From: Candidatus Pelagibacter communis
GTDB taxonomy: Bacteria; Pseudomonadota; Alphaproteobacteria; Pelagibacterales; Pelagibacteraceae
Assembly: GCF_001179965.1 (NCBI RefSeq)
Contig: NZ_CVSH01000060.1
Span: 1 to 56,618, forward strand
Direction of reading: 5' to 3'
DNA length: 56,618 nucleotides
Below are positions 30,263 to 46,175 of this stretch, one piece after another (position 1 is the first letter of the stretch; each line of letters opens with the position of its first letter). The notes beneath the pieces were generated by a model. The model was given only the letters and a program-made list of their open reading frames with translations, was not told the DNA's origin and ran no database searches. The position numbers were made by a program, and so were the translations under genes.

Positions 30263-31058
30263 AAGGCTTAAAAAAATTTTTGAATCTAAAGTTCCAAAAA
30301 CGAAATTAATTGCATATTTTGTTGGATGTTACCCAAATTATAAAACTAGTCTAGAAATAATTAAAAAAGCAATTGATAATGGAGTTTCAGTGGTAGAAGT
30401 TGGTTATGTTACATCAGAAGCTTCAAGCGAAGGGCCAATAATTAAAGAGGCTCATGACCACGTTTTAGCGAATGGAGGGACACTTAATGAAACAATAAAA
30501 TTAGTTAAAGAAATAAGAAGCTATAATAATGATGTTGGAATATTATTAATGGGATATATTGCAAACTTATATAAATACCCAATAAACAAATTTGTAAAAG
30601 ATATTAGAGATGCTGGTGCAGATGCATGTTTAGTTGTTGATGCCCCTCACGAGCTTAAAGAGGAAAATCAATTAAGAGAACAATTAGATAAGCATAATTT
30701 ATCATTAATTAAATTGGTTGCTCCAACAACTGATGATAAACGGTTAAGGGATATAATAAATATTTCATCTGGATTCATTTACCAGGTCAATGTAGCAGGT
30801 GTGACGGGTGTAAAAGATGCAAAAAATGAAGATGTAAGAAATTTCATAAAGAGAATTAGAAAACTAACAGATATTCCTATTTGCTCAGGTTTTGGGATAA
30901 AAACACCGAAAGATGCAAAAAATATTGCTAACAGCGGTGCAAATGGAATTGTAATTGGATCTGCATTTGTTAAATATATACAAGAGAATATGAAAGCCAC
31001 AAATTTACCACAAAAGCTGGGTACTTACATCTCATCTTACTCGAGGATACTAAAGTGA
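30243..31058 (+). CDS. trpA: tryptophan synthase alpha chain-like protein, divergent
   Basis: A TIM-barrel protein of 271 residues related to TrpA, which releases indole from indole-3-glycerol phosphate. Of the two catalytic acids, Glu49 is kept (E52 in VEVGYVTSEA), but Asp60 is replaced by Glu (E63 in SSEGP). The segment PFSDPLADGP reads VTSEASSEGP, and GDP after strand 1 reads CYP. Phosphate-site motifs (AGVTG, GFGI, IGSAFV) look intact. Only TTG starts exist: 30243, used here, or 30255, which gives the more usual short N-terminus; both overlap trpB. Residue numbers count from the first TTG. Confidence 0.8.
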   Translation: MVKTLSKRLKKIFESKVPKTKLIAYFVGCYPNYKTSLEIIKKAIDNGVSVVEVGYVTSEASSEGPIIKEAHDHVLANGGTLNETIKLVKEIRSYNNDVGILLMGYIANLYKYPINKFVKDIRDAGADACLVVDAPHELKEENQLREQLDKHNLSLIKLVAPTTDDKRLRDIINISSGFIYQVNVAGVTGVKDAKNEDVRNFIKRIRKLTDIPICSGFGIKTPKDAKNIANSGANGIVIGSAFVKYIQENMKATNLPQKLGTYISSYSRILK

Positions 31059-32003: not shown

Positions 32004-33260
32004 ATGATTAACTCAGAGATTTATTACAATCATTTACAAAAAAAATATTCTAGGAGTATTACATTAGGAACATCAAGAATTAAGAAAGCGCTTACATTGC
32101 TTAATAATCCCCATGAAAAATTAAACAATCCTATAAACATAATAGGTAGCGATGGTAAGTTCACTTGTATTAAAGCGCTCCAATATTTCTTTGAAGCAAA
32201 TGGCAATACTGCAACTGCTAACTTTTCACCTCATCTTTATGATTTACGAACTCGTTTCTGGTTAAAAAATAGATTTATTTCTCTAAAAGAAATTAAAAAA
32301 TATGAAAAAAAAATCTCAAAACTCAAAATTAAACTTAGCTTATTTGAGGTTTTAACTTTAGTTCATATCTTAGCAGCCTCAAAAGAAAATGCTGATTTTT
32401 CTTTGCAGGAGGCGGGACTTCTGTTCAAGGGAGATGCATCCCGAGTATGGGATAAGCCTTTTATACAGATATGTACAAATTTAAATAAGCAGCACCTTGA
32501 GTGGGTTTATCCTAAAACTATTAATGAAATTTGTAGACAAAAAGTTGGGTATATGAGCAATAATACAAATATTTATATAGGAAAACAGAAGCCAAAAGTT
32601 TTAAGAATAGTAAAAAAAATACTTAAAAAGAATAAGAGTAATATTACTTACCCCTCTTCTTGGAAAATAATAAAGAAGAATAGAAATATTTTTTATAAAG
32701 ATAAAAATAATATAATTAAAATTAACTCAAAATATATTCACAGTAATGGTTTGATTGAAAATTTAGGACTTGCTATTAAAATAGCTTTGGATCTTAAAAT
32801 CAGCAAAATAATAATTGAAAAAACTATACCAAAAATTAAATTTGAAGGTAGAATTGAATATATAAGACGAGGAAAATTAAGGAAATTACTTAATAACAAA
32901 GAAAACCTAATCTTAGACGGGGCACACTCTGAAACATCTGCAGAAAATTTATATAACTATTTAAATACTTTAAAAGGTCCAATATATGGAATTTGGGGTA
33001 TGCAAAAAAATAAAATGCCTGAAAAATTTTTACAGAAATTCAAAAAGATATTTAAAAAAATTTATACATTGAAAATTGAAAATGAAATAAACTCTTGTAA
33101 TCCACTTAAATTAAAAAAAATTGCAAAAAAACAGGGCTATGACACAGAAGATGTTAAAAATCTTAAAATGGCTTTATCGAAAATACATTCGAAGCAGCCT
33201 AAAACAATTTGTATTTTTGGATCCTTATATTTAGTAGGATCAGTTCTGAAAAAAAATTAA
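32004..33260 (+). CDS. folC: folylpolyglutamate synthase / Mur ligase-like protein, divergent
   Basis: A 418-residue Mur-ligase-fold protein in the position where alphaproteobacteria usually carry folC. The P-loop GTNGKGS reads GSDGKFT (48-54), keeping the lysine and the threonine but with F where glycine is usual. The EVGLGGRLDATN block reads EAGLLFKGDASR, and the C-terminal D-AHNP motif reads DGAHSETSA. SPHLYDLRTRFW matches FolC SPHL. FolC adds glutamate to folates. The changes make folate activity uncertain. Its stop is interleaved with that of the convergent thioredoxin gene. Confidence 0.75.
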   Translation: MINSEIYYNHLQKKYSRSITLGTSRIKKALTLLNNPHEKLNNPINIIGSDGKFTCIKALQYFFEANGNTATANFSPHLYDLRTRFWLKNRFISLKEIKKYEKKISKLKIKLSLFEVLTLVHILAASKENADFSLQEAGLLFKGDASRVWDKPFIQICTNLNKQHLEWVYPKTINEICRQKVGYMSNNTNIYIGKQKPKVLRIVKKILKKNKSNITYPSSWKIIKKNRNIFYKDKNNIIKINSKYIHSNGLIENLGLAIKIALDLKISKIIIEKTIPKIKFEGRIEYIRRGKLRKLLNNKENLILDGAHSETSAENLYNYLNTLKGPIYGIWGMQKNKMPEKFLQKFKKIFKKIYTLKIENEINSCNPLKLKKIAKKQGYDTEDVKNLKMALSKIHSKQPKTICIFGSLYLVGSVLKKN

Positions 33261-33571
33261 TCTTTAAGAAAAAATTCTTTTAGGTCCTGTTCAGAAGAAC
33301 CACCAACTTTTCTTTTTGACTCATTTCCGAATTGATATTTAACTATAGTGGGAACGCCACGAATCCCAGCATCACTACTAGTATTGATATTCTCGTCGAC
33401 ATCACAGTAATATATATTTATATTTTTAAATTCCTCAGAGTTTGACAACTTTTCTAATAAAGGTAATTGTCTTTTACATGGAGCACACCAACTTGCACTA
33501 TAATTGATATATGCAACTTCTTCTTTAGAAATTTTTTCTTTAAAATCAGTGTCATTCATTTTTTTTATCAT
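33257..33571 (-). CDS. thioredoxin-like protein
   Basis: A 104-residue thioredoxin fold with the redox motif SWCAPCKRQ near 28-36 (WCAPC in place of the classic WCGPC) and the cis-proline loop RGVPTIV near 74. It is likely a cytosolic disulfide reductase. An in-frame ATG four codons in (33559) is an alternative start. In many alphaproteobacteria a thioredoxin gene sits between folC and addA; here it is next to folC but convergent with it, and its upstream neighbour is a nuclease gene. Confidence 0.85.
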   Translation of the reverse strand: MIKKMNDTDFKEKISKEEVAYINYSASWCAPCKRQLPLLEKLSNSEEFKNINIYYCDVDENINTSSDAGIRGVPTIVKYQFGNESKRKVGGSSEQDLKEFFLKD

Positions 33572-33673: not shown

Positions 33674-34438
33674 ATGGATAAAGATTTTCCTTGGTCAATC
33701 AAATACTATCCAGGTAGCAAAGATCCTTTTATAATTAGTAGATCCAAAATCGACCTATATTTAAGATGTAAAAGATGCGCTTATCTTGATATGAGACTTG
33801 GAATAAAAGGGCCAAAGCCTTTTCCTTATAATTTAAATTCAAGAATTGATACACTTTTAAAAAATGATTTTGATGAGGCACGTAATAAAAATGAAAAAAC
33901 CAAATATCAAAAAGAAGCAAAGATAAACTGTATTCCATATAGTCACGCTGAGCTTAATATTTGGCGTGAACCTTTTAAGGCAGCAAGGTTTCATCACAAA
34001 GAAACTAATATTATTGTAGCAGGATCAGTAGATGATTTATGGCAAGATATTGATACTAAACAGATATCTGTTGTAGATTATAAGTCAACCTTTACAGATA
34101 AGTTTGATAAGTTAAAAAAATTTGATGCTCCTTATTTGATTAATTATAAAAGGCAAGTTGAAATATATCAGTGGATATTATCTAATTTAGGGTTAGATAT
34201 AAGTTTAACAAGCTATTTTTTATATGTTAATGCCAAGATAGATCAAAAAACTTTTGATGATAAATTAGATTTTGAATGGACAATTATCCCTTACAAATCA
34301 AAAGATTACAGCTGGGTGAGTAAAACTATTATAGAAATTAAAAATTTTTTAGAAACAAATAATATTCCATCATCTTCTAATGATTGCGATCTTTGTAAAT
34401 ATATGAGCAAGTTTTTTGATTTTATCAAAAAAAAATAA
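33674..34438 (+). CDS. PD-(D/E)XK nuclease, Cas4/AddB-like with cysteine cluster
   Basis: A 254-residue predicted nuclease. The PD-(D/E)XK core is seen as AGSVDDLW near 116 and SVVDYKST near 133. Four cysteines, C32 and C35 near the N-terminus and CDLC near 240, are placed like the iron-sulphur cluster of AddB, Cas4 and RecB-type nucleases. It probably acts on DNA ends. It is monocistronic, converges on the 1119-residue helicase-nuclease gene across 4 bases, and marks the left end of the island. No Cas1 or Cas2 is present, so a CRISPR role is not supported. Confidence 0.75.
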   Translation: MDKDFPWSIKYYPGSKDPFIISRSKIDLYLRCKRCAYLDMRLGIKGPKPFPYNLNSRIDTLLKNDFDEARNKNEKTKYQKEAKINCIPYSHAELNIWREPFKAARFHHKETNIIVAGSVDDLWQDIDTKQISVVDYKSTFTDKFDKLKKFDAPYLINYKRQVEIYQWILSNLGLDISLTSYFLYVNAKIDQKTFDDKLDFEWTIIPYKSKDYSWVSKTIIEIKNFLETNNIPSSSNDCDLCKYMSKFFDFIKKK

Positions 34439-34442
34439 ATAG

Positions 34443-37400
34443 TTAGTTAATTTGAAATTTTAATAATTTATGAAAATTATTAAGCAATTTAATTTCCTCA
34501 TAATCTGATGGGGCTGTTTCTAAAAGTTTTGGATTAAATAGAATGATTGAGCTGCACTGACTTCTTGATAATGCTACATTTAATCTATTTCGATTAAAAA
34601 ACCATGCTTTATTCCTAGGTAAACTATCAGTATCAGAGGATACCATCGAAATTATTGTAATTGGCGCTTGTTGCCCCTGGAATTTGTCCACAGTTCCGCA
34701 ACGTGACCCTTCAGGTAAATTTGCTAATAAAAAGTTTACTTGAACATTGTAAGGACTTACAATTAAAATATCCTGTATATCTAATTTTCTCTCAATACCA
34801 TTATCTAAAAATTTTACTCCAAAAAGTTGTTTTGTTAATTTTTGAATTACTTTTAGCTCTTCCTCGCTTTTTTGAGAATTATCTGTATGATCCATTGGAA
34901 CAAAATGGATACCATCATTTTGAATTATACAGTTTTTTGGATATTCTATTTTTCTATTCTCTGATTTTTTATTAGTTAGAAGTCTACCATCATAAAAACT
35001 AGATGAGGTAAAACTGTTTATTTTAGGATGAAGTCTAAATGTTTTATTTAAAAATATTCCCTTACCTTCACTAATAGTATCTTTATTCTCTAATAGGTAG
35101 TCTAAAATAGATTTTCCAGAATCATTAGGATGACTTCCGCGGTTCGGTTGACCGAGTTGTAATTGATCGCCAACTAAAATTATATTTTTTGCCATTACAC
35201 CTACTGCTATAATATCTGTGATATTTAATTGTCCAGCTTCATCTACAAATAAATAATCTATTTTTTGATGATAATAAGCATTTGATAAATGATATTTTGT
35301 TCCTGCATAAAGGTTAACGGACTCTTCGTGAAGGCCTTTTAGAAATGGCCTATCATCTGTGGCTGTAACAATAAACTTTCCTTGAAAATGTGTTTCTTCA
35401 TCATCTTTATTACCCTTTTTTATCCCTGAAAAAGTAAATTTTTTTTCAATTGCTATTTGCTCAATTTTTTCAAGTAAATTATGAATTACTTTATGGCTAT
35501 TTGCAGTTACTGCTACAGTTTTTTTGTTTTGCATAAGCTCAACTATTGCAGACGCTGCTTGAAAAGTTTTTCCTGTTCCTGGTGGACCTTGGCAAAAAAG
35601 GTAGCTATCCTTTAAATTTAGAAGAATTTTTGGTATTTCATTTTCAAAATTGTCAGTTTTAATAATTTTTTCACCTAATTGAATCCCTTTTATATTTGGG
35701 AAATCTTTATTTAGTAATGTGGTTATTGCTTTGTAGGTATTTTTATTTTGAATAACATCATCACAATACTTATAGATATTTGAATTTAAATTTTTATATC
35801 TAGATGCTTTTGGAGGTTTTTCACCAATCGAGAGAATGTTTGGAAGAGATTTATCATTCTTAGAAATTCCTTTTCTTAGAACAACTATCTTTTTAATAGG
35901 ATCTAATTCTTCTATTTTTCCAGCAGCATCTGATCGATCCAGCTCAACATTGTTAGCTATAGAGACCTGTTTTCCTTTCTTTAATTTAAATTCTTGATCA
36001 GGGTACATATACTTATAAATTATAGATCTACGTCTAGGGGTTGGATCTTTATAACTTGAAATTAATTTCATATTTGCAATAACCTCTCTATCCTCTATAA
36101 GTTCAGCATCAGTTAGATCCCTTCTATCAAAAAATTCTCTCCACGAAGGTTTATCCTCTCTTGTATAGAAACCAATAATATCTAGCAAAATCTGTTTCAA
36201 TTTTTTATTTTTTAATTTGGAGTCTTGAATTTTATTTGAATATTCGATCATTAACTCTTCGTGAGGTCGAATTTCCTCATGTTCTTCAGTTGTTTCAAAC
36301 CATTTAATTCCCTCGGGTTTTATTTTCAAAAGCCACTGTCTTAGCTCAAATGTAGACTCACAGTCCTCCTTATTATAAAATTCAATCTCATCAAGTAATT
36401 TTTGATTTTTTGTCTTGGTCCATTCAACATAGAATTGTTCTGATTGCTCTCCTTTTTTTACATCTCCTTGACGTTTAAAATTATAAAATTTTTCTAGATT
36501 TTTGATGCTGTAGCTATTCTCTGAAACAAGTATAGCTTGTTTAGTAACTCTGAATAAGTCTACAAACTTTTCTGATCTGAGATAAAAATCATATTCTATA
36601 CCTTTAACTTTATGTAATGAGGTAAGTCTCTCCAAAGCATTTATCTCATAGGCTGCATAGTGATAAATTTTTGCATTTGGGTATTTTTTAAAATGATTTT
36701 TAGTAAGATCAAAAAATTTAATTAAATTTTTTTTTTCTTCTTCTTTGTTATGTGACCATAAAGAAATATATTTTTTTTCATTATTTTCATAATAAAAAAT
36801 ACCAAACAAATATTCTATTTTTGTATCATAAGCGTATTGAGAGCTTTCAAGATCAAAAAATAGATCTCCATCAGAGGGCTTTGGAAGAAGATTAAATCCT
36901 TTTCTTACATATAAGTTTTCATCTATATTTTTAAAAATAGGACTTCCAGTTTTTTCAAAATCTAATTGTAGTTTTGCTTGTTGGATTCTTTTATTTATTA
37001 TTTCATCTCTTAAACCAGATAACCTTGTATTTGGTTTTAGTTTACCAAGATCATCAATTGTTTTAATGCCATTGTTTTTAAATTTTTTTATATTAGATTT
37101 ATTAATTCCACCCACTTGATTAAGATGCCTTTTTTTTTTCCAATCCTCCTCACAAATTTCTTGCCAGTCGCAAAATTTACAGAAGTTACATTTTTCAGGC
37201 TTTGTGCTAATAATTTCTTTCGCTAAAAATTTTTCGTAACTTTTTTTTTGTGAACTATATACTTCAAATACATCATTTAAATTTACTTTTTCTTTTGATC
37301 CATCTTTTAATAAAATAAAAAAGTTTTCTGGCAATATCCCTTGAGCCTTTTTTAAAAGATCACAATAAATTCCAACTTGATATATATGATCTCCTTTTAT

Positions 37401-37802
37401 TTTACTCGAATTTTTAGTATCAATTACTGAATAAGAGTAATCACCTAAATTTGATTTTATTTTTTTATTTATTTCAAGAAAATCGAATTCTCCTCTCCAT
37501 TTCCCATCGGTTAACCAGCCACCATAAATAATTTCGAAACCATCCTTCATGGCTTTGGCTGTCTCTTTAAATTTATCTACATTTTTTAATTTTTTAATAT
37601 CTTTTATTTTTTTATATTTTTTCTTTAATTCTTGAAAATAGTTCTTTTCATGAATATTACCTTTTTCAAAAATCAACTCATCTAAAATAGTTTTTTCCTT
37701 TCGCTTTAATTTCAATATTTTTTCATTTTTTTCATTAAAAATAATATGTTTGCAGCTTAGATACTTTTTAAGCATGCTAGGAGAATAAAAGTTCTTAGTC
37801 AC
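34443..37802 (-). CDS. TM0106-type RecB-like nuclease / RNase H-like / SF1 helicase fusion
   Basis: A 1119-residue three-part protein. The N-terminal RecB-like nuclease has GEFDF (104-108), VIDTK (126-130) and five cysteines at C17 and within CNFCKFCDWQEIC (205-217), likely a 4Fe-4S cluster. Next are a helix-hairpin-helix-like stretch (227-253) and an RNase H/DEDDy-like domain with FFDLES (315-320), HYAAYE (381-386) and YNKEDCEST (476-484). The C-terminal UPF1/DNA2-like helicase has GPPGTGKT (739-746), DEAGQ (854-858), GDQLQLGQP (878-886), DKFQGQQ (1039-1045) and NVALSRS (1075-1081). All motifs look intact. It ends the seven-gene minus operon; such proteins process DNA or RNA ends. Confidence 0.88.
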   Translation of the reverse strand: MTKNFYSPSMLKKYLSCKHIIFNEKNEKILKLKRKEKTILDELIFEKGNIHEKNYFQELKKKYKKIKDIKKLKNVDKFKETAKAMKDGFEIIYGGWLTDGKWRGEFDFLEINKKIKSNLGDYSYSVIDTKNSSKIKGDHIYQVGIYCDLLKKAQGILPENFFILLKDGSKEKVNLNDVFEVYSSQKKSYEKFLAKEIISTKPEKCNFCKFCDWQEICEEDWKKKRHLNQVGGINKSNIKKFKNNGIKTIDDLGKLKPNTRLSGLRDEIINKRIQQAKLQLDFEKTGSPIFKNIDENLYVRKGFNLLPKPSDGDLFFDLESSQYAYDTKIEYLFGIFYYENNEKKYISLWSHNKEEEKKNLIKFFDLTKNHFKKYPNAKIYHYAAYEINALERLTSLHKVKGIEYDFYLRSEKFVDLFRVTKQAILVSENSYSIKNLEKFYNFKRQGDVKKGEQSEQFYVEWTKTKNQKLLDEIEFYNKEDCESTFELRQWLLKIKPEGIKWFETTEEHEEIRPHEELMIEYSNKIQDSKLKNKKLKQILLDIIGFYTREDKPSWREFFDRRDLTDAELIEDREVIANMKLISSYKDPTPRRRSIIYKYMYPDQEFKLKKGKQVSIANNVELDRSDAAGKIEELDPIKKIVVLRKGISKNDKSLPNILSIGEKPPKASRYKNLNSNIYKYCDDVIQNKNTYKAITTLLNKDFPNIKGIQLGEKIIKTDNFENEIPKILLNLKDSYLFCQGPPGTGKTFQAASAIVELMQNKKTVAVTANSHKVIHNLLEKIEQIAIEKKFTFSGIKKGNKDDEETHFQGKFIVTATDDRPFLKGLHEESVNLYAGTKYHLSNAYYHQKIDYLFVDEAGQLNITDIIAVGVMAKNIILVGDQLQLGQPNRGSHPNDSGKSILDYLLENKDTISEGKGIFLNKTFRLHPKINSFTSSSFYDGRLLTNKKSENRKIEYPKNCIIQNDGIHFVPMDHTDNSQKSEEELKVIQKLTKQLFGVKFLDNGIERKLDIQDILIVSPYNVQVNFLLANLPEGSRCGTVDKFQGQQAPITIISMVSSDTDSLPRNKAWFFNRNRLNVALSRSQCSSIILFNPKLLETAPSDYEEIKLLNNFHKLLKFQIN

Positions 37803-37804
37803 AA

Positions 37805-38365
37805 TTAGTTTGGTTTTTTTAATAATTTATCTAATTGTGATTTTCTACTTTTTTTTAAAACCGATGATACTAATTTTCTATTGCAGTTTACATTTAATAG
37901 TTTTGTTACTTCTGCAGCAATTTTTGTTGTTGTATAACATTTATTCCATTTTATATCTCTCAATTTTTGTTTTTCTTTTCGATTAGGAATTTTACTTATT
38001 TTATCTTCATAATCTTGTGCACTTGGTGCTGCATCAAAAATTTCTAAAATTTTTTTTTTTTTCTTTTCTAAAAATTCAGCACCAATTAAAGATGTATTAT
38101 TATTTTTACAGTTTTGAAAAATTTCCTGGAGTTTCGTTTCAGTTGGTTTAAGGTAAATAGTTGGTGTAGATCCTGCTGAGCCAACCCTAACTAATCTTGA
38201 CATTTTAATATTATTATTGTTTGCAAATCTAGGAAGGTTATCTTTTCTTTCGATTTTTATATTTTTACTGTTTAAAAGTTTAATTAATTCATCATCCGTT
38301 AAGTATCCTTGAGGTTTTTCCTTAAAAGGGTCTATATTATTAAGTTTTTCGTAATATTTTTGCAT
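37805..38365 (-). CDS. hypothetical protein, possible C-terminal helix-turn-helix
   Basis: A 186-residue basic protein I do not recognise. It begins with a helical region (YLTDDELIKLLNSKNIKI), followed by LVRVGSAGSTPTIYLKP, which looks like a beta-hairpin. Its C-terminal 45 residues (TTTKIAAEVTKLLNVNCNRK, then LVSSVLKKSRKS) read like a winged helix or helix-turn-helix. It sits 2 bases upstream of the helicase-nuclease gene and 7 bases after rmuC, so it is translated with them and may serve as a DNA-binding partner. That role is inference. Confidence 0.65.
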   Translation of the reverse strand: MQKYYEKLNNIDPFKEKPQGYLTDDELIKLLNSKNIKIERKDNLPRFANNNNIKMSRLVRVGSAGSTPTIYLKPTETKLQEIFQNCKNNNTSLIGAEFLEKKKKKILEIFDAAPSAQDYEDKISKIPNRKEKQKLRDIKWNKCYTTTKIAAEVTKLLNVNCNRKLVSSVLKKSRKSQLDKLLKKPN

Positions 38366-38372
38366 AAATTTT

Positions 38373-39512
38373 TTATTTTTTATAATTTATTACTTTTTTT
38401 TCTTCGGGGTCACTAATGTAGTCTAAGTTTTTATCATTTTCATTAGACACTTTTAAATCTCTTGTGTTTAGGCCATGTTCATTTTTTAATTTTTTTATTT
38501 TGCTTTCTAAACCTTGGTCCGAGCCAAACGCGCTATGTATTACATCTTTAAGAGCATTAGTATGAGTTTTATGTGAGTTTATTGCAGTTCTTAAGCTATC
38601 TTTTAATATTGAGTATTTATCATAAATATCCTCTGCTTTTTTAATCATTCCACCAACTTTAGAAATTTGTTTTTCCTGGTTTTTTATACTCGTGACTGTA
38701 CTAATTAAACCCATTATCGATATTGGACCACAAAGTAAAATTTTTTTCTCAAAACATTTATCAAAAATAGACTCATTTTCATGTTCTAATACTGATAAAT
38801 AACACGCATCAAATGGCATAAATAAAATTACATATTGAAAACTTTGTAAATTATAAATTTTTAGATAATCTTTATTTGATAATTCATCTATATGGTTTTT
38901 TACAGAGTCAATATGCTTTTTAATATATATATCTCTTGATTGCTTATCCTTGGAGTTTGCAAATTGTTCAAATGCTTTTAGTGAGACTTTACAATCAACT
39001 ATAATTTTTTGATTATCAGGTAGATGTAAAATAAAATCAGGATTAATTCTTTTCTCTTTACCTGTAATGGGATCAATATTTTTTTTTCCTTTTCTTTCCT
39101 CAAAATCATCGTTCTCTTTAAGTCCATGCTTTTCAAATATTCTTCTTAGTTTTAATTCATTAAATCTACCCTGGTATTTTGCATCACCTGTTAATTTTTC
39201 ATGGAAGTTTTTATGTTCAGTGATAACTGCTTGATATTCTTGAAAACTTTTTTGGCTTATCTCTTTAAAACTATTTACATCTGTCCTGCTTTGAATAAGC
39301 TCTTGTTTGTCTTGTTTTAGATCTAAAATATATTGATTTTTTATATTGAGCTCTTTGTCTAAACCCTCATAATCTTTTTGTAATTTAATAAAATCTGGAT
39401 CTGTGTCTTTATCGATTAACTGATTATGCTTATTTTTTTTTACAAAATAAAAAATTAATCCAACTAATGTAAATGCTAGTGTAATGTTAATTATTGGTAA
39501 AAGTTCAATCAT
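38373..39512 (-). CDS. rmuC: DNA recombination protein RmuC
   Basis: A 379-residue RmuC: an N-terminal membrane anchor (about 4-24), a long coiled coil (about 45-120) and a PD-(D/E)XK-like domain with RFNELKLRRIFEKHGL near 131, NPDFILHLPDNQKIIVDCKV near 168-187 and FMPFDACYLSVL near 240. RmuC restrains recombination at inverted repeats and is often found near defence genes. It follows the GHKL-like gene by 23 bases in the minus operon. A standard rmuC would usually be a stand-alone house-keeping gene, so its place here is notable. Confidence 0.88.
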   Translation of the reverse strand: MIELLPIINITLAFTLVGLIFYFVKKNKHNQLIDKDTDPDFIKLQKDYEGLDKELNIKNQYILDLKQDKQELIQSRTDVNSFKEISQKSFQEYQAVITEHKNFHEKLTGDAKYQGRFNELKLRRIFEKHGLKENDDFEERKGKKNIDPITGKEKRINPDFILHLPDNQKIIVDCKVSLKAFEQFANSKDKQSRDIYIKKHIDSVKNHIDELSNKDYLKIYNLQSFQYVILFMPFDACYLSVLEHENESIFDKCFEKKILLCGPISIMGLISTVTSIKNQEKQISKVGGMIKKAEDIYDKYSILKDSLRTAINSHKTHTNALKDVIHSAFGSDQGLESKIKKLKNEHGLNTRDLKVSNENDKNLDYISDPEEKKVINYKK

Positions 39513-39535
39513 ATATCACTGTTATTATTTATATA

Positions 39536-41125
39536 CTAGTTTGTAAGTTTTCTCCATTCTTTTGAATATTTTTTTACCGAGTGATTGTTGTCAATACACT
39601 TTTGAATTAATATTGTTAAGCAGTCACTAAAACTTCTATCTCCATCATAACCACCTAAACTATGACTAAGCTCATGAAGAAAAGTTGAAAACATTTTACC
39701 GAAAGATTCTTTAAATAGCGATTTGTGTAAATAAATTACTTTATGATTGTAATCATATTTATCTTTTAGTTGTCCTAATAAATCTTTGCATGTAATAGTT
39801 TTGAATTTCACATTATATAAAGGATCGTCATAATCATCCGATGTAAATAATTTAGCAAAAGATGGTGAAATACTTTTTGCTGCTGAAAATAAAAAATCAA
39901 TCGATTTTTGCTCTTGAGGTGTCAAATCTTTCGTTTTTTTATTTTTAATTCTATTTTCAGAGTTTTTCCTATTTTTAATAAAGCTTTCAAGAGCACTCAT
40001 TACTCCAAAGTTTGTAAAATAAGCAGGTAAGATTTTCTTTTTCTTTTTTTCTCTTGCGGTTCTGCTTCTAATAAAATTCTGAGTACTTGTTGAAAACCAA
40101 TCAGAGTAGCTTATATCTCTAGAATAAGTATATCTTGACTCAGCATAATAATTATTTCCAAATAATTCCTTAAGATTTTTATCATTCTTGAGGCGAGAGT
40201 AACTATTATTGGCAATTGCAGACAATAGTAAATGACCCTTTTCCCAAATAGGTTTGCTTTTTTCTAATATGTATTTTATTGCGATATTGCCTGGTAAATC
40301 CATATAATAAAAACCACTCCTAGCTAAAATCGAGAAATATGTTGCCTGTAATTTTGTATCAAAAGCTTTTCTATCTCTATCCATTTTTACTTTCTTATCC
40401 AAAGCTGCGTAAGATTTATTAATATGAACCACTACTGGAATTCCTATTATATCTATTCTTTTTAAATTTTTATAAAAACCTGCACCGTTTGCAGTATTTG
40501 ATTTAAAAATTGTTATTCCGTTATATTCATTCAATACCTCGCCGATTTGATCGTTTTCCTTGTAGAAGAAATTTGACATGCCAAATTTAAAAGCTTTTTT
40601 TAATTTTTTATTAATAGTCTTAATTATTAAATAATTTCCCTTAAGTTTATTTATTTTAAAATAGTTATAAATTAATGGTCTTAACCCATCAGTATTGGGC
40701 ACTTCTTCACCAACTGATATTATTAAGGCCTTATCGCCACTAATTAGAATTGGGTTAAAAACACCCATTCTAGCTAAGTCAGAAAATACTTTTTTTCCAC
40801 CTTCACCATGTGCCCCTATCATTTGAATATCGGACTCTGATTTTGTGGACCCAATATAATATAGTTTTTCTAAATTAAATTCATTTGGTGCAAATATTTT
40901 AATTGTATCATTGTCTGTTGTAATCTTAATACTTGATATAGGCAAATTATTTTCTTTACAGCCGTCGAAATGGTTTTGCAAAGCATCTCTTGCGATCATA
41001 TCTTCGGTCCATATCTCTTCTGACCAACTCGTTGTAATTGCAGAAGGAACTGATTTAATATGCTCTGCTTCTTTAATTTCTTTTACATCAAACAACAATT
41101 CTTTAATTTTTTTAATATCTGTCAT
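39536..41125 (-). CDS. GHKL (Bergerat) ATPase-like region fused to HExxH metallopeptidase-like region
   Basis: A 529-residue protein. Near the N-terminus, ARDALQNHFDG (45-55) resembles the N box of GHKL ATPases, and MIGAHGEGGKKVFSDLARMG (102-121) the glycine-rich G2/lid box. Between them IKIFAPNEFNLEKLYYIGS occupies the DxGxG (G1) position, but its Asp and Gly are missing. The middle (130-270) continues like the GHKL/S5 fold. The C-terminal part has TFLHELSHSLGGYDGDRSF (481-499), a HExxH zinc-peptidase motif (H484, E485, H488). I know of no firm function for this pairing. It lies between a small unknown gene and rmuC in one operon, separated by 6 and 23 bases. Confidence 0.7.
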   Translation of the reverse strand: MTDIKKIKELLFDVKEIKEAEHIKSVPSAITTSWSEEIWTEDMIARDALQNHFDGCKENNLPISSIKITTDNDTIKIFAPNEFNLEKLYYIGSTKSESDIQMIGAHGEGGKKVFSDLARMGVFNPILISGDKALIISVGEEVPNTDGLRPLIYNYFKINKLKGNYLIIKTINKKLKKAFKFGMSNFFYKENDQIGEVLNEYNGITIFKSNTANGAGFYKNLKRIDIIGIPVVVHINKSYAALDKKVKMDRDRKAFDTKLQATYFSILARSGFYYMDLPGNIAIKYILEKSKPIWEKGHLLLSAIANNSYSRLKNDKNLKELFGNNYYAESRYTYSRDISYSDWFSTSTQNFIRSRTAREKKKKKILPAYFTNFGVMSALESFIKNRKNSENRIKNKKTKDLTPQEQKSIDFLFSAAKSISPSFAKLFTSDDYDDPLYNVKFKTITCKDLLGQLKDKYDYNHKVIYLHKSLFKESFGKMFSTFLHELSHSLGGYDGDRSFSDCLTILIQKCIDNNHSVKKYSKEWRKLTN

Positions 41126-41131
41126 ATTTAT

Positions 41132-41425
41132 TTACCTCCATTTTTGATTATTATTAATTATATCCAATTCTTCTTTTAAAACTGCTATCATACTTAAAAC
41201 TTTCTTGTAAGAATGCTGAGCTCTTTTTTTTTGATAATATTTTAAAAGATTAATTGGTAAAAAATAAAAATTTAATATTGCACAAAAAAATCTTTTATCT
41301 TTGTAAAATTTTTTTTTTGCTTTTTCAATTATTTCTTGATTTTTAAACCAGTTTTGCCAATCAGCTTCCCAATCAAGATAAAATGATAACTTTTCTTGTA
41401 ATAAATATTTATGGTTTTTTTTCAT
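41132..41425 (-). CDS. small basic hypothetical protein
   Basis: A 97-residue lysine-rich protein that I do not recognise. It has an aromatic patch (FYLDWEADWQNWFKNQ, 15-30), a hydrophobic segment near 46-62 (FFCAILNFYFLPINLLKYY) that might touch a membrane, and a helical C-terminus. It is packed between the WGR gene (2 bases) and the GHKL-like gene (6 bases), so it is almost certainly co-expressed with them. Confidence 0.55.
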   Translation of the reverse strand: MKKNHKYLLQEKLSFYLDWEADWQNWFKNQEIIEKAKKKFYKDKRFFCAILNFYFLPINLLKYYQKKRAQHSYKKVLSMIAVLKEELDIINNNQKWR

Positions 41426-41427
41426 TA

Positions 41428-41664
41428 TTAATTTATCTCAACATAGCCTTTGTTAATTTTTTCTCTTATTTTTTTTGTACGAAATTTTTCAGCATCTTCT
41501 TTTGTTTTAAAGCCTTCCTTTGTATTAGAAGTTGGAAACTTATAAGTTTTAATGACTGGAGTTTTACCTATACGTCCAAATGAAATGATTAATTTTTTAG
41601 ACTCTAAATTTATTTTCCAGAACTTAAATGCGTTTTCATTATGGTTGATATATTCTAATCTCAT
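41428..41664 (-). CDS. WGR-domain protein
   Basis: A 78-residue stand-alone WGR domain: LEYINHNENAFKFWKINLE, then the signature SFGRIG (29-34, for WGRIG) and a helix KTKEDAEKFRTKKIREKINK leading to GYVEI. WGR domains bind DNA or RNA ends and are found in eukaryotic PARPs and bacterial DNA-repair proteins. A clear AAGGAG ribosome binding site precedes the ATG, one of few in this region. It is the second gene of the minus-strand operon. Confidence 0.8.
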   Translation of the reverse strand: MRLEYINHNENAFKFWKINLESKKLIISFGRIGKTPVIKTYKFPTSNTKEGFKTKEDAEKFRTKKIREKINKGYVEIN

Positions 41665-41675
41665 ATTATTTCTCC

Positions 41676-42092
41676 TTAATTTAATGTTTTATTTTTACTT
41701 GTTTTTCTTCGACCAAAAAGATCGTATTCCTCATCTGGGTCGCTAGTCCACTCATCAATAGAATTCATAAAATTTTTATGACTCTTTAATAATTGGCGTG
41801 ATGTCCAATTTGTGTAAAATTTGAATGATGGGTACGACATTTCATGCTGCATTCTTTGCATCACTCTGAAATAAAATATATACCAACACTCTTCTGAGCT
41901 TAGAGCTTCCCTGGTGCTTTTTTCTTTAAATGCATCTACCAATTCCTTTGAAAAAGCATCCATTTTTTCCCAAATTTCATTATGAGTTTCGATTTTTTTT
42001 TCTTTTAAGGATTTAGTTTTAAAAGGAAGCAAATTAGTTACTTTTGAATTTCCACCTTTTAAATCCTTTTTTTTGTCGTTATTTTTGCTCAT
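41676..42092 (-). CDS. hypothetical protein, first gene of the minus island operon
   Basis: A 138-residue protein without a recognised family. The first 45 residues are charged and probably disordered; the rest has a helical core with ALSSEECWYIFYFRVMQRMQ (about 70-89), an aromatic FKFYTNWTSRQLLKSHKNF stretch and an acidic C-terminus (TSDPDEEYDLFGRRK). I chose the ATG at 42092; an in-frame TTG at 42149 would run into the promoter palindrome. It leads the WGR-GHKL-rmuC-helicase operon. Confidence 0.6.
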   Translation of the reverse strand: MSKNNDKKKDLKGGNSKVTNLLPFKTKSLKEKKIETHNEIWEKMDAFSKELVDAFKEKSTREALSSEECWYIFYFRVMQRMQHEMSYPSFKFYTNWTSRQLLKSHKNFMNSIDEWTSDPDEEYDLFGRRKTSKNKTLN

Positions 42093-42121
42093 ATAAGCCT
42101 TTTTATCAGGTATTTTGCTAA

Positions 42122-42196
42122 TGTCAAGATTTTTTTGTATTAAACACAAAAAAAATTAATAAAAAGTCTTGAATTTTTGTTTTTTTAGTATATATA
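42122..42196. promoter_or_regulatory. back-to-back promoters with a palindrome between them
   Basis: On the minus strand TTGACA (42127-42122) fits a -35 exactly, with GATAAA/ATAAAA 14-15 bases downstream. On the plus strand TTGAAT (42169-42174) is followed after 16 bases by TATATA (42191-42196), 12 bases before the ATG at 42208. Between the two -35 elements lies an inverted repeat, TTTTTTTGT (42130-42138) and ACAAAAAAA (42146-42154), with a 7-base centre. This is the right place for a regulator of both operons, but the repeat is made of A/T runs, so chance is possible. Confidence 0.5.
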
Positions 42197-42207
42197 AAGA
42201 GTAATAC

Positions 42208-43515
42208 ATGAATAAAAATTTTTATAATAATAATTTATCAAAAAGTGCGAGATTGCTTAAAAACATTCTCGATTTATCGAACGTAGGCCAGAGAGAATGT
42301 TCAGAAAACATGGGAAAAAAAGAACAATTCTTAAGAAACTATATTTACACCGACAAAAATACAAAATTTGGTAGAGACTTTGCCTATAATTTTCTTGCGA
42401 GCATTTACCATGAAATTTCAATTAAGAGAAAAAAAAATATTAACGATGAATTTCAGACTATTTTAAAAAATAAAATAAATATTGATAATGATATAGAAAA
42501 TAATTTAATTTTACCTTCTATAGAAAGACATGTTTTAGCACTAGCAAAAATCGATAAAGAGGTTTTTGATATTGGTGAGATAGCCATTCTAGATAATTAT
42601 TTACAAAAAATTTTCCCGCAAGAAAGTGATGAATATATAAATTATTTAAGATCAAATGATTACCCAAGAGAAGGTTTTAAAAATATAGATAATTTACAAT
42701 CTACTTTTGAAAATAATTTAAATACATCTGATGTGGCGAAATTTAAATTATTTGAGAAAAGAGCAGAGTCAATTAATAATTTTTATTTTATTTGTGAAAA
42801 ACTTAGAGAAAGTTATTTACCTAACTTCATCTCGTTATCGGACTGGAAAGAAATTGAAATGGAATATTTTAATAAAGGAAATTTTTTGATCAAAAGAAGT
42901 AAAATTAATAACCTTAAGCAATCAAAGATTTCTGGTGGAGAAGTAATAATTAAAAGTGGTAAATTTACTTTCGAACCTCTTCGAAAAGACTCTAAAGGAA
43001 TTAAAAAAACAAGCTGGTTTTTTGGAAACAAAAAAGAAGAAGTTTTTGAAGAAAAAAATTTAGAATTAAAAATTGAAAAAGCAAAACTCGAAGCTACAAG
43101 AATTGCAGAGGAAACTGCAAAAATTATCGAGCATGAGACAGCCAAAAGAGCTGCTGCAGCAAAAGCTGATATAGGTAAAGTAATAGAAAAACAAAATAAA
43201 CAACAAGATATAATTAGTAAATTTACAAGCGAAAATTTAAGACTACAAAAAGAAGTTTCTCATTATAAAAAATTATTTGAAAAAAGAAATCGAAGACAAG
43301 ATAAGAATTCCGATGAAGCAACTCTTGCCATAATTGATTTATGGCAAAAAGGAAAAGATATTAGAATTCATGAAATTGATCAATATATAAATAAATTTGG
43401 TAAAAATGAATTAATTAAAAACTTTGTAAAAAATTATTTTATGACAAAAATATTTGATAACAGTGATGAATTAAATTTGTTGAAAGATTTTAAAGAAGAA
43501 AAAAAGAGAGCTTAA
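42208..43515 (+). CDS. coiled-coil protein of unknown function
   Basis: A 435-residue protein, first gene of the plus-strand operon. The N-terminus (SARLLKNILDLSNVGQRECS, 12-31) might be a helix-turn-helix. The middle is soluble and mixed, with GGEVIIKSGKFTFEPLRKDS near 247. Residues about 285-375 form a coiled coil with an alanine-rich stretch (EHETAKRAAAAKADIGKVIE). The C-terminus is helical. It precedes the exonuclease I-like gene by 3 bases. I cannot assign a function; a scaffold or DNA-binding role is a guess. Confidence 0.65.
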   Translation: MNKNFYNNNLSKSARLLKNILDLSNVGQRECSENMGKKEQFLRNYIYTDKNTKFGRDFAYNFLASIYHEISIKRKKNINDEFQTILKNKINIDNDIENNLILPSIERHVLALAKIDKEVFDIGEIAILDNYLQKIFPQESDEYINYLRSNDYPREGFKNIDNLQSTFENNLNTSDVAKFKLFEKRAESINNFYFICEKLRESYLPNFISLSDWKEIEMEYFNKGNFLIKRSKINNLKQSKISGGEVIIKSGKFTFEPLRKDSKGIKKTSWFFGNKKEEVFEEKNLELKIEKAKLEATRIAEETAKIIEHETAKRAAAAKADIGKVIEKQNKQQDIISKFTSENLRLQKEVSHYKKLFEKRNRRQDKNSDEATLAIIDLWQKGKDIRIHEIDQYINKFGKNELIKNFVKNYFMTKIFDNSDELNLLKDFKEEKKRA

Positions 43516-43518
43516 ATA

Positions 43519-44982
43519 ATGAAACAAAAACTTGTAACATATTTTGATTGTGAAAGCACGTCTGGTAGAGCTAGCACTGCTTGTTGCCTTTCAGTTTCTT
43601 ATATAACGTGTGATATAAACAATAATTTTAAAATAATTAATAGTTTATCAGGGACTATAAATTCTAAATTTAAAAAATCTCGTCCATTTGAGGTTGATGC
43701 GATGCTCGCTCATAATATTCCGATTGATAAAATTGAAAATGAAAAAAATTCAAATGCAGAGTTGGTAGATAAATGGGACAAGGCTTTTAGAGAGTTAAGT
43801 GATATGGGAAGTATTTTTTGCGGTTTTAATAATTTTAACTACGATAATATTCTTTTAAATAACTCTCTATTCATTAACTTAAAGTTTCCATTCATAATCA
43901 ATAAAGAACAATGGGATTTATTACCTGCAATAAGAGCTGCCTCAGTTTTTGCTCCGGGGTCCTTAAATTATGAACTAAATGCAAAAGGTAATACATCTTA
44001 TAAATTGCAATCGATGCTGAGGGCAAATAATATAATACCTAAAAAAGAACACGATAGCTACGAAGATACGCTGTCAACACTTAAACTGAGTAAACTTTTA
44101 AAAGATAAAGCTCCCCAAATATTTGATGCGGCATTAGCCCTTAGAAGAAAAATTGATGTACTGCCTAAAATTAAAAAAGAGGAGATTTTTTGTTGGCATG
44201 AATCATATTTCAGAACAAGGATATTTTGTGGGACATTATTAGGCGACACTATATTCCCAGGTTGGTTCTATTTATTTGATTTAAGAAAAAATCCAGATGA
44301 AATCTTGTCTTTAAATATACAAGATTTGAAAAGTGATTTATCAAATTCAAAAATAAAATATATACGTACTTTAAAATCTAATCGAGCACCTATCATATTA
44401 GATAAAAAATTTAGTGCTTTAGATGATGATTATAAAGAATTAGGAATGAAAGAAATTAAAAGAAGGTTTAACTTAATAAAAAATAATAAAGAAGAATTAT
44501 CAAGTAAAATAAAATTAATTCAGGAAGAAAAATATAATGATAAACAAGAAATTAATCAAGATGAGCTACGTCCTGAAGAAAAAATCTATACATTAAACAT
44601 CACTGCCGAAGAAAGAAATCTTGCAAATAATTTTAATCTCAACCCAAATCCAAAAGAGAAAAAGAATATTTATAATAAGTTTAAAAGAGATGATGTAAAA
44701 CTTTTAGCAAAAATGAGAGTTTTTGATAATTTTGATGAAGATGTGTTTTGTGAAGTTTTTTCTAGAAGAGAGTACAAAACATTAAAAAAAGAAATCGCTG
44801 ATTTAATTTTAGATACAAGTAATTCTCCAAGCCCATTTACAAAAATTCCTGAACAACAAGCTAGAATTGATACATTAAGGGTAATTGCAGAAAAAAGTGA
44901 AGATGAATTTAAAATCAATCAATTAAACAGTTTTGATAGATACTTAGAAGATATGAAAAATAAATTTTTACAAGCTTCTTAA
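43519..44982 (+). CDS. exonuclease I (SbcB)-like DEDDh 3'-5' exonuclease
   Basis: A 487-residue protein whose N-terminal 210 residues match the DnaQ-like core of exonuclease I. It has YFDCEST (D10, E12), CGFNNFNYDN (D109), EQWDLLPAIRAASVFAPGS near 130-148 as in SbcB, and HDSYEDT (H178, D183), so all four metal residues and the histidine are present. Exonuclease I degrades single-stranded DNA 3' to 5'. The C-terminal half aligns less clearly and ends in charged helices. Neighbours on both sides are within 5 bases. Confidence 0.8.
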   Translation: MKQKLVTYFDCESTSGRASTACCLSVSYITCDINNNFKIINSLSGTINSKFKKSRPFEVDAMLAHNIPIDKIENEKNSNAELVDKWDKAFRELSDMGSIFCGFNNFNYDNILLNNSLFINLKFPFIINKEQWDLLPAIRAASVFAPGSLNYELNAKGNTSYKLQSMLRANNIIPKKEHDSYEDTLSTLKLSKLLKDKAPQIFDAALALRRKIDVLPKIKKEEIFCWHESYFRTRIFCGTLLGDTIFPGWFYLFDLRKNPDEILSLNIQDLKSDLSNSKIKYIRTLKSNRAPIILDKKFSALDDDYKELGMKEIKRRFNLIKNNKEELSSKIKLIQEEKYNDKQEINQDELRPEEKIYTLNITAEERNLANNFNLNPNPKEKKNIYNKFKRDDVKLLAKMRVFDNFDEDVFCEVFSRREYKTLKKEIADLILDTSNSPSPFTKIPEQQARIDTLRVIAEKSEDEFKINQLNSFDRYLEDMKNKFLQAS

Positions 44983-44986
44983 ACAA

Positions 44987-45544
44987 ATGACTTCTTTAGA
45001 TGAAAATACGGTAAAAAAAATATTTAATAGTTACTTTGTCCCAAGCTATGTGGGCCAATTAAAAGATATAAATTTAATATTAAAAATTTTAGTAGAATTA
45101 CAAAAAGAACCTTCTCCAACTGCAACTAAAGTTGTTGAAGAAATAAAAAAAAGTACAAAAAATAAGATTAAATTAAATGAGAGCAATATTAAAAGAATAA
45201 GAATTAAGGCAAGAGAGCATAATTTGATCAATTACCCAAAAGTTAAATTTGAACACGCTACATCAAAAAATAAATATTTAAAAATTCTTCCAGTTGATAA
45301 ATATAATTTTCCTCCATACGTACGAAAAGGTCAAAAAGTTGCGACACAAAATGATAGATATAAAGTTGATTTTAAAAACCCTCATGGGAAATCAAATATA
45401 CCAGATTATTTAAGAGGTGTGCAATTTTATAAAAATAAAAGTGATGCTGAAAGTGCTATTAAAGAAAAAAAAAATTTTACAGATACATGGTTTAAAAGTA
45501 AAAAATTTAAAAATAAAAGAAAAATAAACAAGATTCATGACTAA
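44987..45544 (+). CDS. hypothetical protein with possible winged-helix N-terminus
   Basis: A 185-residue basic protein, not recognised. Residues 20-85 (LILKILVELQKEPSPTATKV, a basic turn, then KLNESNIKRIRIKAREHNL) look like a winged-helix fold. The following YLKILPVDKYNFPPYVRKGQ and NPHGKSNIPDYLRGVQFYK are conserved-looking and possibly nucleic-acid binding. It starts 4 bases after the exonuclease gene and overlaps the next gene by 8 bases, so it belongs to the same operon. Confidence 0.6.
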   Translation: MTSLDENTVKKIFNSYFVPSYVGQLKDINLILKILVELQKEPSPTATKVVEEIKKSTKNKIKLNESNIKRIRIKAREHNLINYPKVKFEHATSKNKYLKILPVDKYNFPPYVRKGQKVATQNDRYKVDFKNPHGKSNIPDYLRGVQFYKNKSDAESAIKEKKNFTDTWFKSKKFKNKRKINKIHD

Positions 45545-46175
45545 TAAACTTGAGGAATATTTAGAGCTTCAAATTAAAAATGGTAATATTAATTGGGATA
45601 GTAAAAGCAAATTAATTAGGTCATCTGGAGAAAAGGTTAACGGATATACAAATAAAATTATAAAAAAATTTGAAAATAAATTTAATTTTTCAATAGATCT
45701 TAAAAATAAAGAAATTAAAAAATACTTTGATAAATTACCAAAAAATAGCTTCGTAAACGTGTTAAAAGCAAGGGATGAAATTAATAAAAATTTGTCATCA
45801 AATAATCAAATAGGTGGAGAAAGAAGTTGTAAGATAATTTATGATCGTCTTGATGATCCAAAATTTAATACAAATGGTTTAAAGCCTCAAAGTTTAAAAA
45901 GAGAAAGTTCTCATAAATATCCAAGTGCTGTGTCAAAACAGATTGAGATGAAAATAAAAAAACTAAATGAGAAGCTCAAAGTAGATAAAAAATTTGCATT
46001 TGTATATTTAGAGAATACACAAGCTGGAAATCAAACTCTCAGGTTTCATTCATATAATACTGAATATTCACAAGACAAAGAAAGGGATATATTTGCTAAA
46101 ACAAATAAAAGTACTTCTTTTTATCCAAATAATGAATCCTTAGAAAAAATTAAAAAAATAATTTATAAGAATTAA
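45537..46175 (+). CDS. hypothetical protein, last gene of the plus island operon
   Basis: A 212-residue protein I do not recognise. It is charged and helical at the N-terminus, has a central IGGERSCKIIYDRLDDPKFN (about 92-111) and a C-terminal FAFVYLENTQAGNQTLRFHS (about 154-173) that reads like beta strands. It overlaps the upstream gene by 8 bases. Its stop is 6 bases from the convergent hisG stop, so it forms the right edge of the island. Confidence 0.6.
   Translation: MTNKLEEYLELQIKNGNINWDSKSKLIRSSGEKVNGYTNKIIKKFENKFNFSIDLKNKEIKKYFDKLPKNSFVNVLKARDEINKNLSSNNQIGGERSCKIIYDRLDDPKFNTNGLKPQSLKRESSHKYPSAVSKQIEMKIKKLNEKLKVDKKFAFVYLENTQAGNQTLRFHSYNTEYSQDKERDIFAKTNKSTSFYPNNESLEKIKKIIYKN

What the first reader, a model, noticed from the sequence alone, without database searches (positions are those of the whole stretch)
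33674..46175. Two divergent operons form a candidate nucleic-acid maintenance or defence island
A seven-gene minus operon (unknown, WGR, small unknown, GHKL-like/HExxH fusion, rmuC, unknown, nuclease-helicase) and a four-gene plus operon (coiled coil, ExoI-like, two unknowns) diverge from one 115-base region. A further nuclease gene lies at the left edge. Spacings inside each operon are 2-23 bases or overlaps, so the genes are very likely expressed together. Several domains known for DNA ends (PD-(D/E)XK, SF1 helicase, WGR, DEDDh exonuclease, RmuC) are combined with six proteins I cannot name. I know of no described system with this exact set; this is inference from content and packing, and no phage, plasmid or integrase gene is in view.
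Basis: partly seen in the sequence, partly recalled or inferred. Interest (0 to 1): 0.85.

Follow-up and report, generated by a model that had tools for sequence, protein, structure and literature searches.

The report
Swappable SAR11 DNA-end nuclease locus
In SAR11, the most abundant ocean bacteria, one fixed chromosomal spot carried RmuC and exonuclease I genes in almost every genome examined, and this window holds a rare enlarged version with an unusual ATPase-protease, which may help destroy or clean up DNA ends during phage attack or DNA damage.

Summary
The two divergent operons are real, but they are not a free-standing island. They are one rare haplotype of a SAR11-wide locus between folC/trxA and hisG. 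Most loci read hold a compact cassette there: ExoI-like exonuclease, PD-(D/E)XK nuclease, RmuC (9 of the first 20, 38 of 40 further loci). RmuC is single-copy in 20 of 20 genomes.

In about 3% of genomes (8 of 297 after dropping one spurious hit) the locus carries protein D: a GHKL (MutL/MORC/Hsp90-type) ATPase fused to an HExxH zinc-peptidase-like domain, with no Pfam, NCBIfam or PADLOC name. D lies 0-2 genes from RmuC, same strand, in 25 of 26 loci; the 26th is cut by a contig end. The window-type RmuC and ExoI are about 15% and 28% identical to the standard forms; RmuC keeps PD...DCK where most standard ones read VE...DSH. Genes inserted beside the cassette were known or candidate defence genes in 12 of 16 loci I chose to scan.

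Best reading: an ATP-gated, membrane-tethered DNA-end destruction machine shaped by phage conflict. Main rival: repair of protein-blocked ends. Function is inferred, not shown.

The parts
33257..33571 (-). trxA, left flank of the locus
   Evidence: Thioredoxin PF00085 5.2e-19; flanks the locus in the loci
33674..34438 (+). nuc: PD-(D/E)XK (Cas4-like) nuclease, loosely linked passenger
   Evidence: PDDEXK_1 7.3e-06; position changes between loci
34443..37802 (-). A: RecB-like nuclease (TM0106 type) + RNase H-like + SF1 helicase
   Evidence: found in 15 of 297 genomes, not always in this locus
37805..38365 (-). B: unknown
   Evidence: no family over cut-off; in 18 D loci shared for distance comparison
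38373..39512 (-). C: RmuC with N-terminal hydrophobic stretch and intact PD...DCK
   Evidence: PF02646 4.4e-50; hydropathy; motif
39536..41125 (-). D: GHKL ATPase (about residues 27-297) fused to HExxH zinc-peptidase-like domain (about 372-529)
41132..41425 (-). E: small protein of unknown function
   Evidence: no family over cut-off; weak PADLOC HEC-01B 0.0034; adjacent to D in type-1 loci
41428..41664 (-). F: WGR-domain protein
   Evidence: PF05406 5.4e-11
41676..42092 (-). G: unknown, first gene of the minus operon
   Evidence: no family
42093..42207 (.). 115-base divergent region
   Evidence: no excess of sigma-70-like or terminator-like sites
42208..43515 (+). H: probable regulator or scaffold; relatives carry an S24-like domain
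   Evidence: alignment; Peptidase_S24 1.3e-05 over cut-off in L071's H, 0.0057 under cut-off in L081's, none in L082's
43519..44982 (+). I: ExoI-like DEDDh exonuclease
44987..45544 (+). J: unknown, rare
45537..46175 (+). K: unknown, rare; one relative found, in L092
46182..46862 (-). hisG, right flank of the locus
   Evidence: HisG 9.6e-33

Best explanation
The window carries a rare, enlarged haplotype of a SAR11-wide nuclease locus (folC-trxA ... hisG) whose resident parts are RmuC and an ExoI-like exonuclease. Shown: the position, one RmuC per genome, the replacement of the standard RmuC and ExoI by very distant alleles, the recurrent D-RmuC linkage, and defence genes inserted beside the cassette. 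Inferred mechanism: D closes its MutL/MORC-like GHKL part on DNA or on a partner in an ATP-dependent way; its C-terminal zinc peptidase then removes or cleaves a protein, either a phage protein capping a DNA end or a partner that restrains the machine; this licenses membrane-anchored RmuC and ExoI, helped where present by helicase-nuclease A and the WGR protein, to degrade the DNA. H, read from the divergent region, regulates or scaffolds. SAR11 genomes tested show no AddA, so the locus may do a RecBCD-like job of destroying foreign linear DNA, and its variability would be the mark of phage conflict.
For: RmuC once in each of 20 genomes with or without D; RmuC and ExoI at the same place in 59 and 60 of 60 loci without D. 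Standard against type-1 identity: RmuC 15%, ExoI 28%, hisS 52%. D 0-2 genes from RmuC on the same strand in 25 of 26 loci. Type-1 RmuC with intact PD...DCK (16 of 84 sequences). Inserted genes: RM types I, II and IIG, Mza, Druantia, PbeA and ATPase families in 12 of 16 loci scanned. No AddA over cut-off in 12 of 12 genomes. Precedent: Shield, a membrane RmuC nuclease with a metallopeptidase-like partner (PMC10270631).
Against: The resident genes look like housekeeping genes; D is rare. The loci scanned for defence genes were chosen by me; four of 16 gave none, and five of the 12 positive loci lack D, so the hotspot belongs to the locus, not to D. D distances also follow folC (0.64) and hisS (0.59), so shared descent or linkage explains part of the correlation. 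In type 2 D is 60% alike while RmuC is only 19% alike, so D is not tied to one RmuC. A distant relative of D in G461 has no RmuC in the 8.1-kb contig. No expression or phage data.
Confidence: 0.48

Rival explanations
1. DNA repair of blocked ends. D is a DNA-clamping protease, comparable to eukaryotic Wss1/SPRTN, that digests proteins crosslinked to DNA; RmuC, ExoI, A and WGR then process the freed end in place of the missing AddAB. Allele swapping is a by-product of recombination.
For: Best fold matches of the C-terminal domain are Wss1 (Z 8.6) and the crosslink-protease entry 6mdw (8.2); weak WLM and SprT-like Pfam hits in 2 and 4 of 23 members and SprT-like 0.0061, under cut-off, in a distant relative; GHKL fold of the MutL kind; WGR here and BRCT in some type-2 loci; no AddA over cut-off in 12 of 12 genomes; resident single-copy genes.
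Against: Other zinc peptidases score within 1 Z (selecase 8.2, abylysin 8.0) and other peptidase families hit more members. Repair genes are not expected to be replaced by 15%-identical alleles, and defence genes cluster here.
Confidence: 0.27
2. Shield-like control. D's peptidase acts on RmuC itself or its membrane anchor and holds the nuclease off until ATP binding or phage infection changes D; DNA-bound proteins are not its substrate.
For: D is next to RmuC in 16 loci and 1-2 genes away in 9; a hydrophobic N-terminal stretch in 44 of 44 RmuC sequences examined; in Shield a metallopeptidase-like protein lowers the level of a membrane RmuC nuclease (PMC10270631, passages).
Against: D is found with several unrelated RmuC types, including VE...DAH forms, which a dedicated RmuC protease would have to tolerate. 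ShdB has an M15-type fold by that paper; D's matches are other zinc peptidases.
Confidence: 0.13
3. No system: independent defence or repair genes that pile up at a recombination hotspot next to a resident RmuC-ExoI pair.
For: A occurs in 15 of 297 genomes and in G015 and G054 lies away from the ExoI gene; A and nuc change position, J and K are rare; unrelated defence genes insert nearby.
Against: The B-C-D-E-(F)-G || H-I block keeps its order and divergence in type-1 loci and is inverted as one unit in L070; distances of D correlate with G 0.96, ExoI 0.87, RmuC 0.76, E 0.69, H 0.62 and B 0.58 against hisG 0.02.
Confidence: 0.12

Closest known systems
Shield (ShdA with ShdB), Pseudomonas anti-phage system (PMC10270631: outline, abstract and passages seen)
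   Same: Membrane-bound RmuC-domain nuclease as core; a metallopeptidase-like partner encoded beside it; found near defence genes
   Different: D carries a GHKL ATPase and another peptidase type; ExoI, WGR and the divergent operon are absent from Shield; the authors found Shield only in Pseudomonas
Standard SAR11 cassette trxA-ExoI-PDX-RmuC-hisG
   Same: Same chromosomal position, same RmuC and ExoI roles, one RmuC per genome
   Different: Very distant alleles (RmuC 15%, ExoI 28%); standard RmuC mostly VE...DSH; D, E, F, G, H, B and A missing
Wss1/SPRTN-type crosslink proteases
   Same: Predicted zinc-peptidase fold with HExxH (Z 8.6 and 8.2)
   Different: Fused to a GHKL ATPase; similarity to other zinc peptidases is about as strong; no sequence family hit over cut-off for the window protein
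GHKL ATPases MutL, MORC, Hsp90; phage RIIA and phrog_6077 proteins
   Same: N-terminal fold (Z 11.4 and 11.0); phrog_6077 hits 18 of 23 members; RIIA proteins in the viral fold list
   Different: Three phage relatives read have no HExxH
RecBCD/AddAB (recalled comparison)
   Same: Works-like: RecB-like nuclease, helicase and exonuclease acting on DNA ends
   Different: Not a homologous complex; A is TM0106/IGHMBP2 type

Membership tests
Shield anti-phage system | Membrane RmuC-domain nuclease (ShdA) | tested here: inconclusive
   RmuC over cut-off, hydrophobic N-terminus by hydropathy only, PD...DCK intact; homology to ShdA itself was not compared
Shield anti-phage system | ShdB-type (M15-like) metallopeptidase | tested here: inconclusive
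   D's peptidase part matches Wss1, selecase and abylysin; M15 is not in the listed rows, which does not exclude it
Resident SAR11 RmuC-ExoI locus | Position folC-trxA ... hisG with one RmuC and an ExoI-like gene | tested here: met
Resident SAR11 RmuC-ExoI locus | Compact trxA-ExoI-PDX-RmuC order | tested here: not met
   0 of 26 D loci have it
GHKL ATPase | Fold and N-box plus GxGxG lid | tested here: met
   N51, G104, G107, E108, G109 invariant in 23 members; MutL Z 11.4
GHKL ATPase | Adenine-binding Asp of the DxGxG motif (recalled) | tested here: inconclusive
   No clear DxGxG in the alignment; read by eye
SprT/Wss1 (SPRTN) protease | Family profile over cut-off | tested here: not met
   window: WLM 0.035 under cut-off; SprT-like hits 4 of 23 members, best 0.009
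SprT/Wss1 (SPRTN) protease | Fold | tested here: inconclusive
   Z 8.6 and 8.2, within 1 of other zinc peptidases; Foldseek none at E<=0.001
Reverse-transcriptase defence (PADLOC RTasRmuC, RTasSbcB) | A reverse transcriptase gene in the system | tested here: not met
   No RT family among the twelve proteins; the rest of the window was not scanned
Mokosh (MkoA, hit of protein A) | Full MkoA-type protein | tested here: not met
   Best hit stretch covers only A's helicase part, 824-1087; A's N-terminus is TIGR03491
Published hypervariable region HVR3 of HTCC1062 | Same chromosomal place as SAR11_1162-1173 | tested here: not met
   G011, whose contig has the recalled HTCC1062 length of 1,308,759, holds the standard cassette at about 472 kb; the osmC-like and betaine-homocysteine methyltransferase genes that end HVR3 are not seen there by eye. 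Rests on that identification

The most novel reading that the evidence does not exclude
D founds a bacterial class of DNA-clamp proteases: a MutL/MORC-like ATPase fused to a Wss1/SPRTN-like peptidase that strips protecting proteins off DNA ends so that a membrane-tethered RmuC nuclease and ExoI can destroy capped phage DNA, in a near-universal but allele-swapping immune locus of the most abundant bacteria in the ocean.
Probability: 0.2. Interest if true: 0.9.

Novelty: new variant of a known kind. Interest (0 to 1): 0.62.

Why it matters
Here is a fixed locus in SAR11 where resident nucleases are replaced by very distant alleles and known defence systems insert. If it is an immune locus, it gives a single-copy target to test whether RmuC and ExoI are a basic SAR11 barrier to phage DNA. 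D offers a possible bacterial counterpart of crosslink proteases, with its own ATPase. A cultured strain, HTCC9565, carries the D haplotype by record title, so the question can be tested.

Tried and rejected
Independent island: rejected as stated, because RmuC and ExoI are resident genes of the locus.

Mobile origin of D: no relative in viral contigs, phage records or plasmids by sequence. Distant phage relatives exist by profile and fold.

D outside SAR11: of 398 genomes of the phylum only G000 and G461. G461's relative is at the end of an 8.1-kb contig beside genes that look like sensor kinases and response regulators (by eye), with no RmuC. Profile phrog_6077 found 8 of 299 genomes; one of them, G526, has a GHKL-HELIH protein next to a DUF2130 gene. 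DUF2130 as a nuclease is recalled; the paper search gave nothing useful.

One search's hit in G239 (22 bits) lies in a 282-aa frame that looks like an unrelated methyltransferase (by eye); dropped. PDB sequence search with D found only low-scoring matches to unrelated molecules, and with its C-terminal part also two weak metalloproteinase matches. Promoter and terminator scan of the divergent region: 1 found against 2.5 expected. Labels 'PDX' beside hisZ and 'J154' were wrong and were replaced.

Paper searches (listings only, except PMC10270631 and PMC2217521, of which I saw passages and named sections); none listed a paper on this locus. One search (ARPP-1) returned unrelated papers.
Full report
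What is there. The region lies in a SAR11 genome (G000, 801,227 bases in 63 contigs, 68% complete). The eleven genes, the left-edge nuclease and the 115-base divergent region are as described. Families: WGR, RmuC, Cas4-like + RNase_H_2 + SF1 helicase, PDDEXK_1; TM0106 RecB-like nuclease with IGHMBP2-type helicase for A; ExoI-like for I. B, D, E, G, H, J and K have no Pfam family over cut-off. PADLOC was run on ten of the twelve proteins (not J, K) and NCBIfam on ten (not E, K).

A resident locus. An ExoI-like protein was found in 275 of 297 genomes of the order, in the printed rows mostly at 25-33% identity. I read 20 of those loci, chosen among complete genomes and the best matches, and 40 more picked from the printed, best-scoring part of the list. 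RmuC is in 19 of 20 and 40 of 40 (the miss, L065, is cut by a contig end), ExoI in 20 of 20 and 40 of 40, and the compact order trxA-ExoI-PDX-RmuC in 9 of 20 and 38 of 40. Three more loci, L158-L160, have it too, though trxA was not labelled in L160. RmuC occurs once in each of 20 genomes, eight of them D carriers. So RmuC and ExoI are slots that are almost always filled, and the window's versions replace the standard ones.

How different the alleles are. Median identity between 8 standard and 7 type-1 loci: RmuC 15% (13-18), ExoI 28% (23-32), folC 29% (26-68), hisG 46%, hisZ 46%, hisS 52%. Within standard loci: RmuC 86%, ExoI 56%, hisS 81%. In 84 RmuC sequences the PD-(D/E)XK signature reads VE...DSH in 49, PD...DCK in 16 (window included), VD...DSK in 7, PD...DSK in 6, PD...DAK in 3 and VE...DAH in 3. 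Most standard RmuC thus seem to lack the canonical Lys; the type-1 form has it.

The D haplotypes. D matched 9 of 297 genomes, one spuriously, so 8. A genome-collection scan gave 25 loci, all SAR11 by title, including cultured HTCC9565; with the window, 26 loci, some near-duplicates. Type 1 keeps G-F-E-D-C-B divergent from H-I; in L070 the block is inverted as one unit. In six loci (L074-L078, L080) A lies beyond nuc and trxA, so A and nuc are separate passengers. A is in 15 of 297 genomes at E<=1e-60, seven of them inside this locus as read. H is in 7 of 297: five D carriers plus G040 and G082, which have the block without D and F. Type 2 reads D-ARPP1-RmuC-ExoI with other genes in some. Type 3 (L093) has D-RmuC with ExoI and an HTH gene. 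D is 0 (16 loci), 1 (8) or 2 (1) genes from RmuC on the same strand; L088 ends first. Distance correlations with D: G 0.96, ExoI 0.87, RmuC 0.76, E 0.69, folC 0.64, H 0.62, hisS 0.59, B 0.58, A 0.33, trxA 0.27, hisZ 0.03, hisG 0.02, on 11 to 25 shared loci. The folC and hisS values show that descent or linkage explains part of this. Within type 2 RmuC is only 19% alike (14-97) while D is 60%: D goes with the slot, not with one RmuC.

What D is. Twenty-three members share N51, GxxGEG (104-109), DRDR (249-252) and HExxH...DGxRxFSD (484-501). The full model (pLDDT 84.5, pTM 0.70) resembles MutL (Z 11.4), MORC2 (11.0) and TRAP1/Hsp90; Foldseek's one hit at E<=0.001 is TRAP1. The C-terminal 158 residues (pLDDT 82.9) resemble Wss1 (Z 8.6, rmsd 2.8, 100 residues), 6mdw (8.2), selecase (8.2) and abylysin (8.0); Foldseek has none at E<=0.001. 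Z near 8 is middling by the tool's own note. The five Pfam families hit by most members are zinc peptidases, weakly. 'Zinc-peptidase-like' is fairly safe; 'SPRTN-like' is a lead.

Neighbours. I looked up inserted genes at 16 loci chosen by eye. PADLOC hits in 11 of 12 loci: L071 MzaC, L075 and L077 type IIG RM, L076 C5 methylase, L086 methylase and PbeA-like helicase, L090 HsdS and HsdR, L093 Helicase_II/MzaC, L054 PbeA, L060 DruA and MzaB, L114 NsnB/AriA/GajA-like ATPase, L133 C5 methylase and PDC-M33A; none in L132 (one protein). By Pfam alone: DruA in L064; a PIF1-like helicase in L082; nothing in L070 and L073 (one protein each). So 12 of 16, and five of the 12 lack D. In 35 of the 40 later loci hisG follows the cassette directly; L128 and L137 end first; L114, L132 and L133 have insertions.

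Function. No AddA over cut-off in 12 of 12 SAR11 genomes; printed hits lie in frames of 676-753 aa, which I take for UvrD. RecB was not searched separately. The closest functional precedent is Shield, where a membrane RmuC nuclease gives defence and a metallopeptidase-like protein restrains it (PMC10270631, abstract and passages). I favour a phage-facing DNA-end destruction machine with D as ATP-gated peptidase (0.48) over repair of protein-blocked ends (0.27), peptidase control of RmuC (0.13) and mere clustering (0.12). All functional steps are inference.

Against my reading. The resident genes look like housekeeping genes; D is rare; no phage test exists; G461's D relative has no RmuC on its short contig; the C-terminal fold scores are middling; loci for the defence scan and for the cassette count were not drawn at random.

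Noticed in passing
window 29072-31058 and 32004-33260: trpB, trpA and folC beside the locus are also very distant alleles: trpB is 33-38% identical to most loci read but 78-81% in L012 and L054; trpA 24-32% against 68-70%.
   Followed up: partly
loci with the standard cassette, e.g. L053:11198-12292: Most SAR11 RmuC read VE...DSH in place of the PD-(D/E)XK signature (49 of 84), so the common form may be a dead or altered nuclease.
   Followed up: partly
L062:7536-10876 (G040): The A gene is broken into two frames, with a TAG counted in the match, while G082 has an intact copy.
   Followed up: no
L152:4793-7719 (G526): A distant GHKL-HELIH protein lies next to a DUF2130 gene, among genes that look like dnaN, recF and gyrB by eye; an independent pairing of this architecture with a possible nuclease.
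   Followed up: partly
L071:7574-9055, L081:1336-2811: Relatives of H carry an S24 (LexA/CI-like) domain (over cut-off only in L071), which suggests a repressor-type regulator.
   Followed up: partly
12 SAR11 genomes: No AddA over the family cut-off; end processing in SAR11 may depend on other nucleases such as this locus.
   Followed up: partly
phage proteins of phrog_6077; L146, L147, L148: A phage family of GHKL proteins related to D's N-terminal half, with RIIA proteins in the viral fold list.
   Followed up: partly
L086, L090, L092: A small BRCT-domain protein, beside the WGR gene in L092, in type-2 loci.
   Followed up: no
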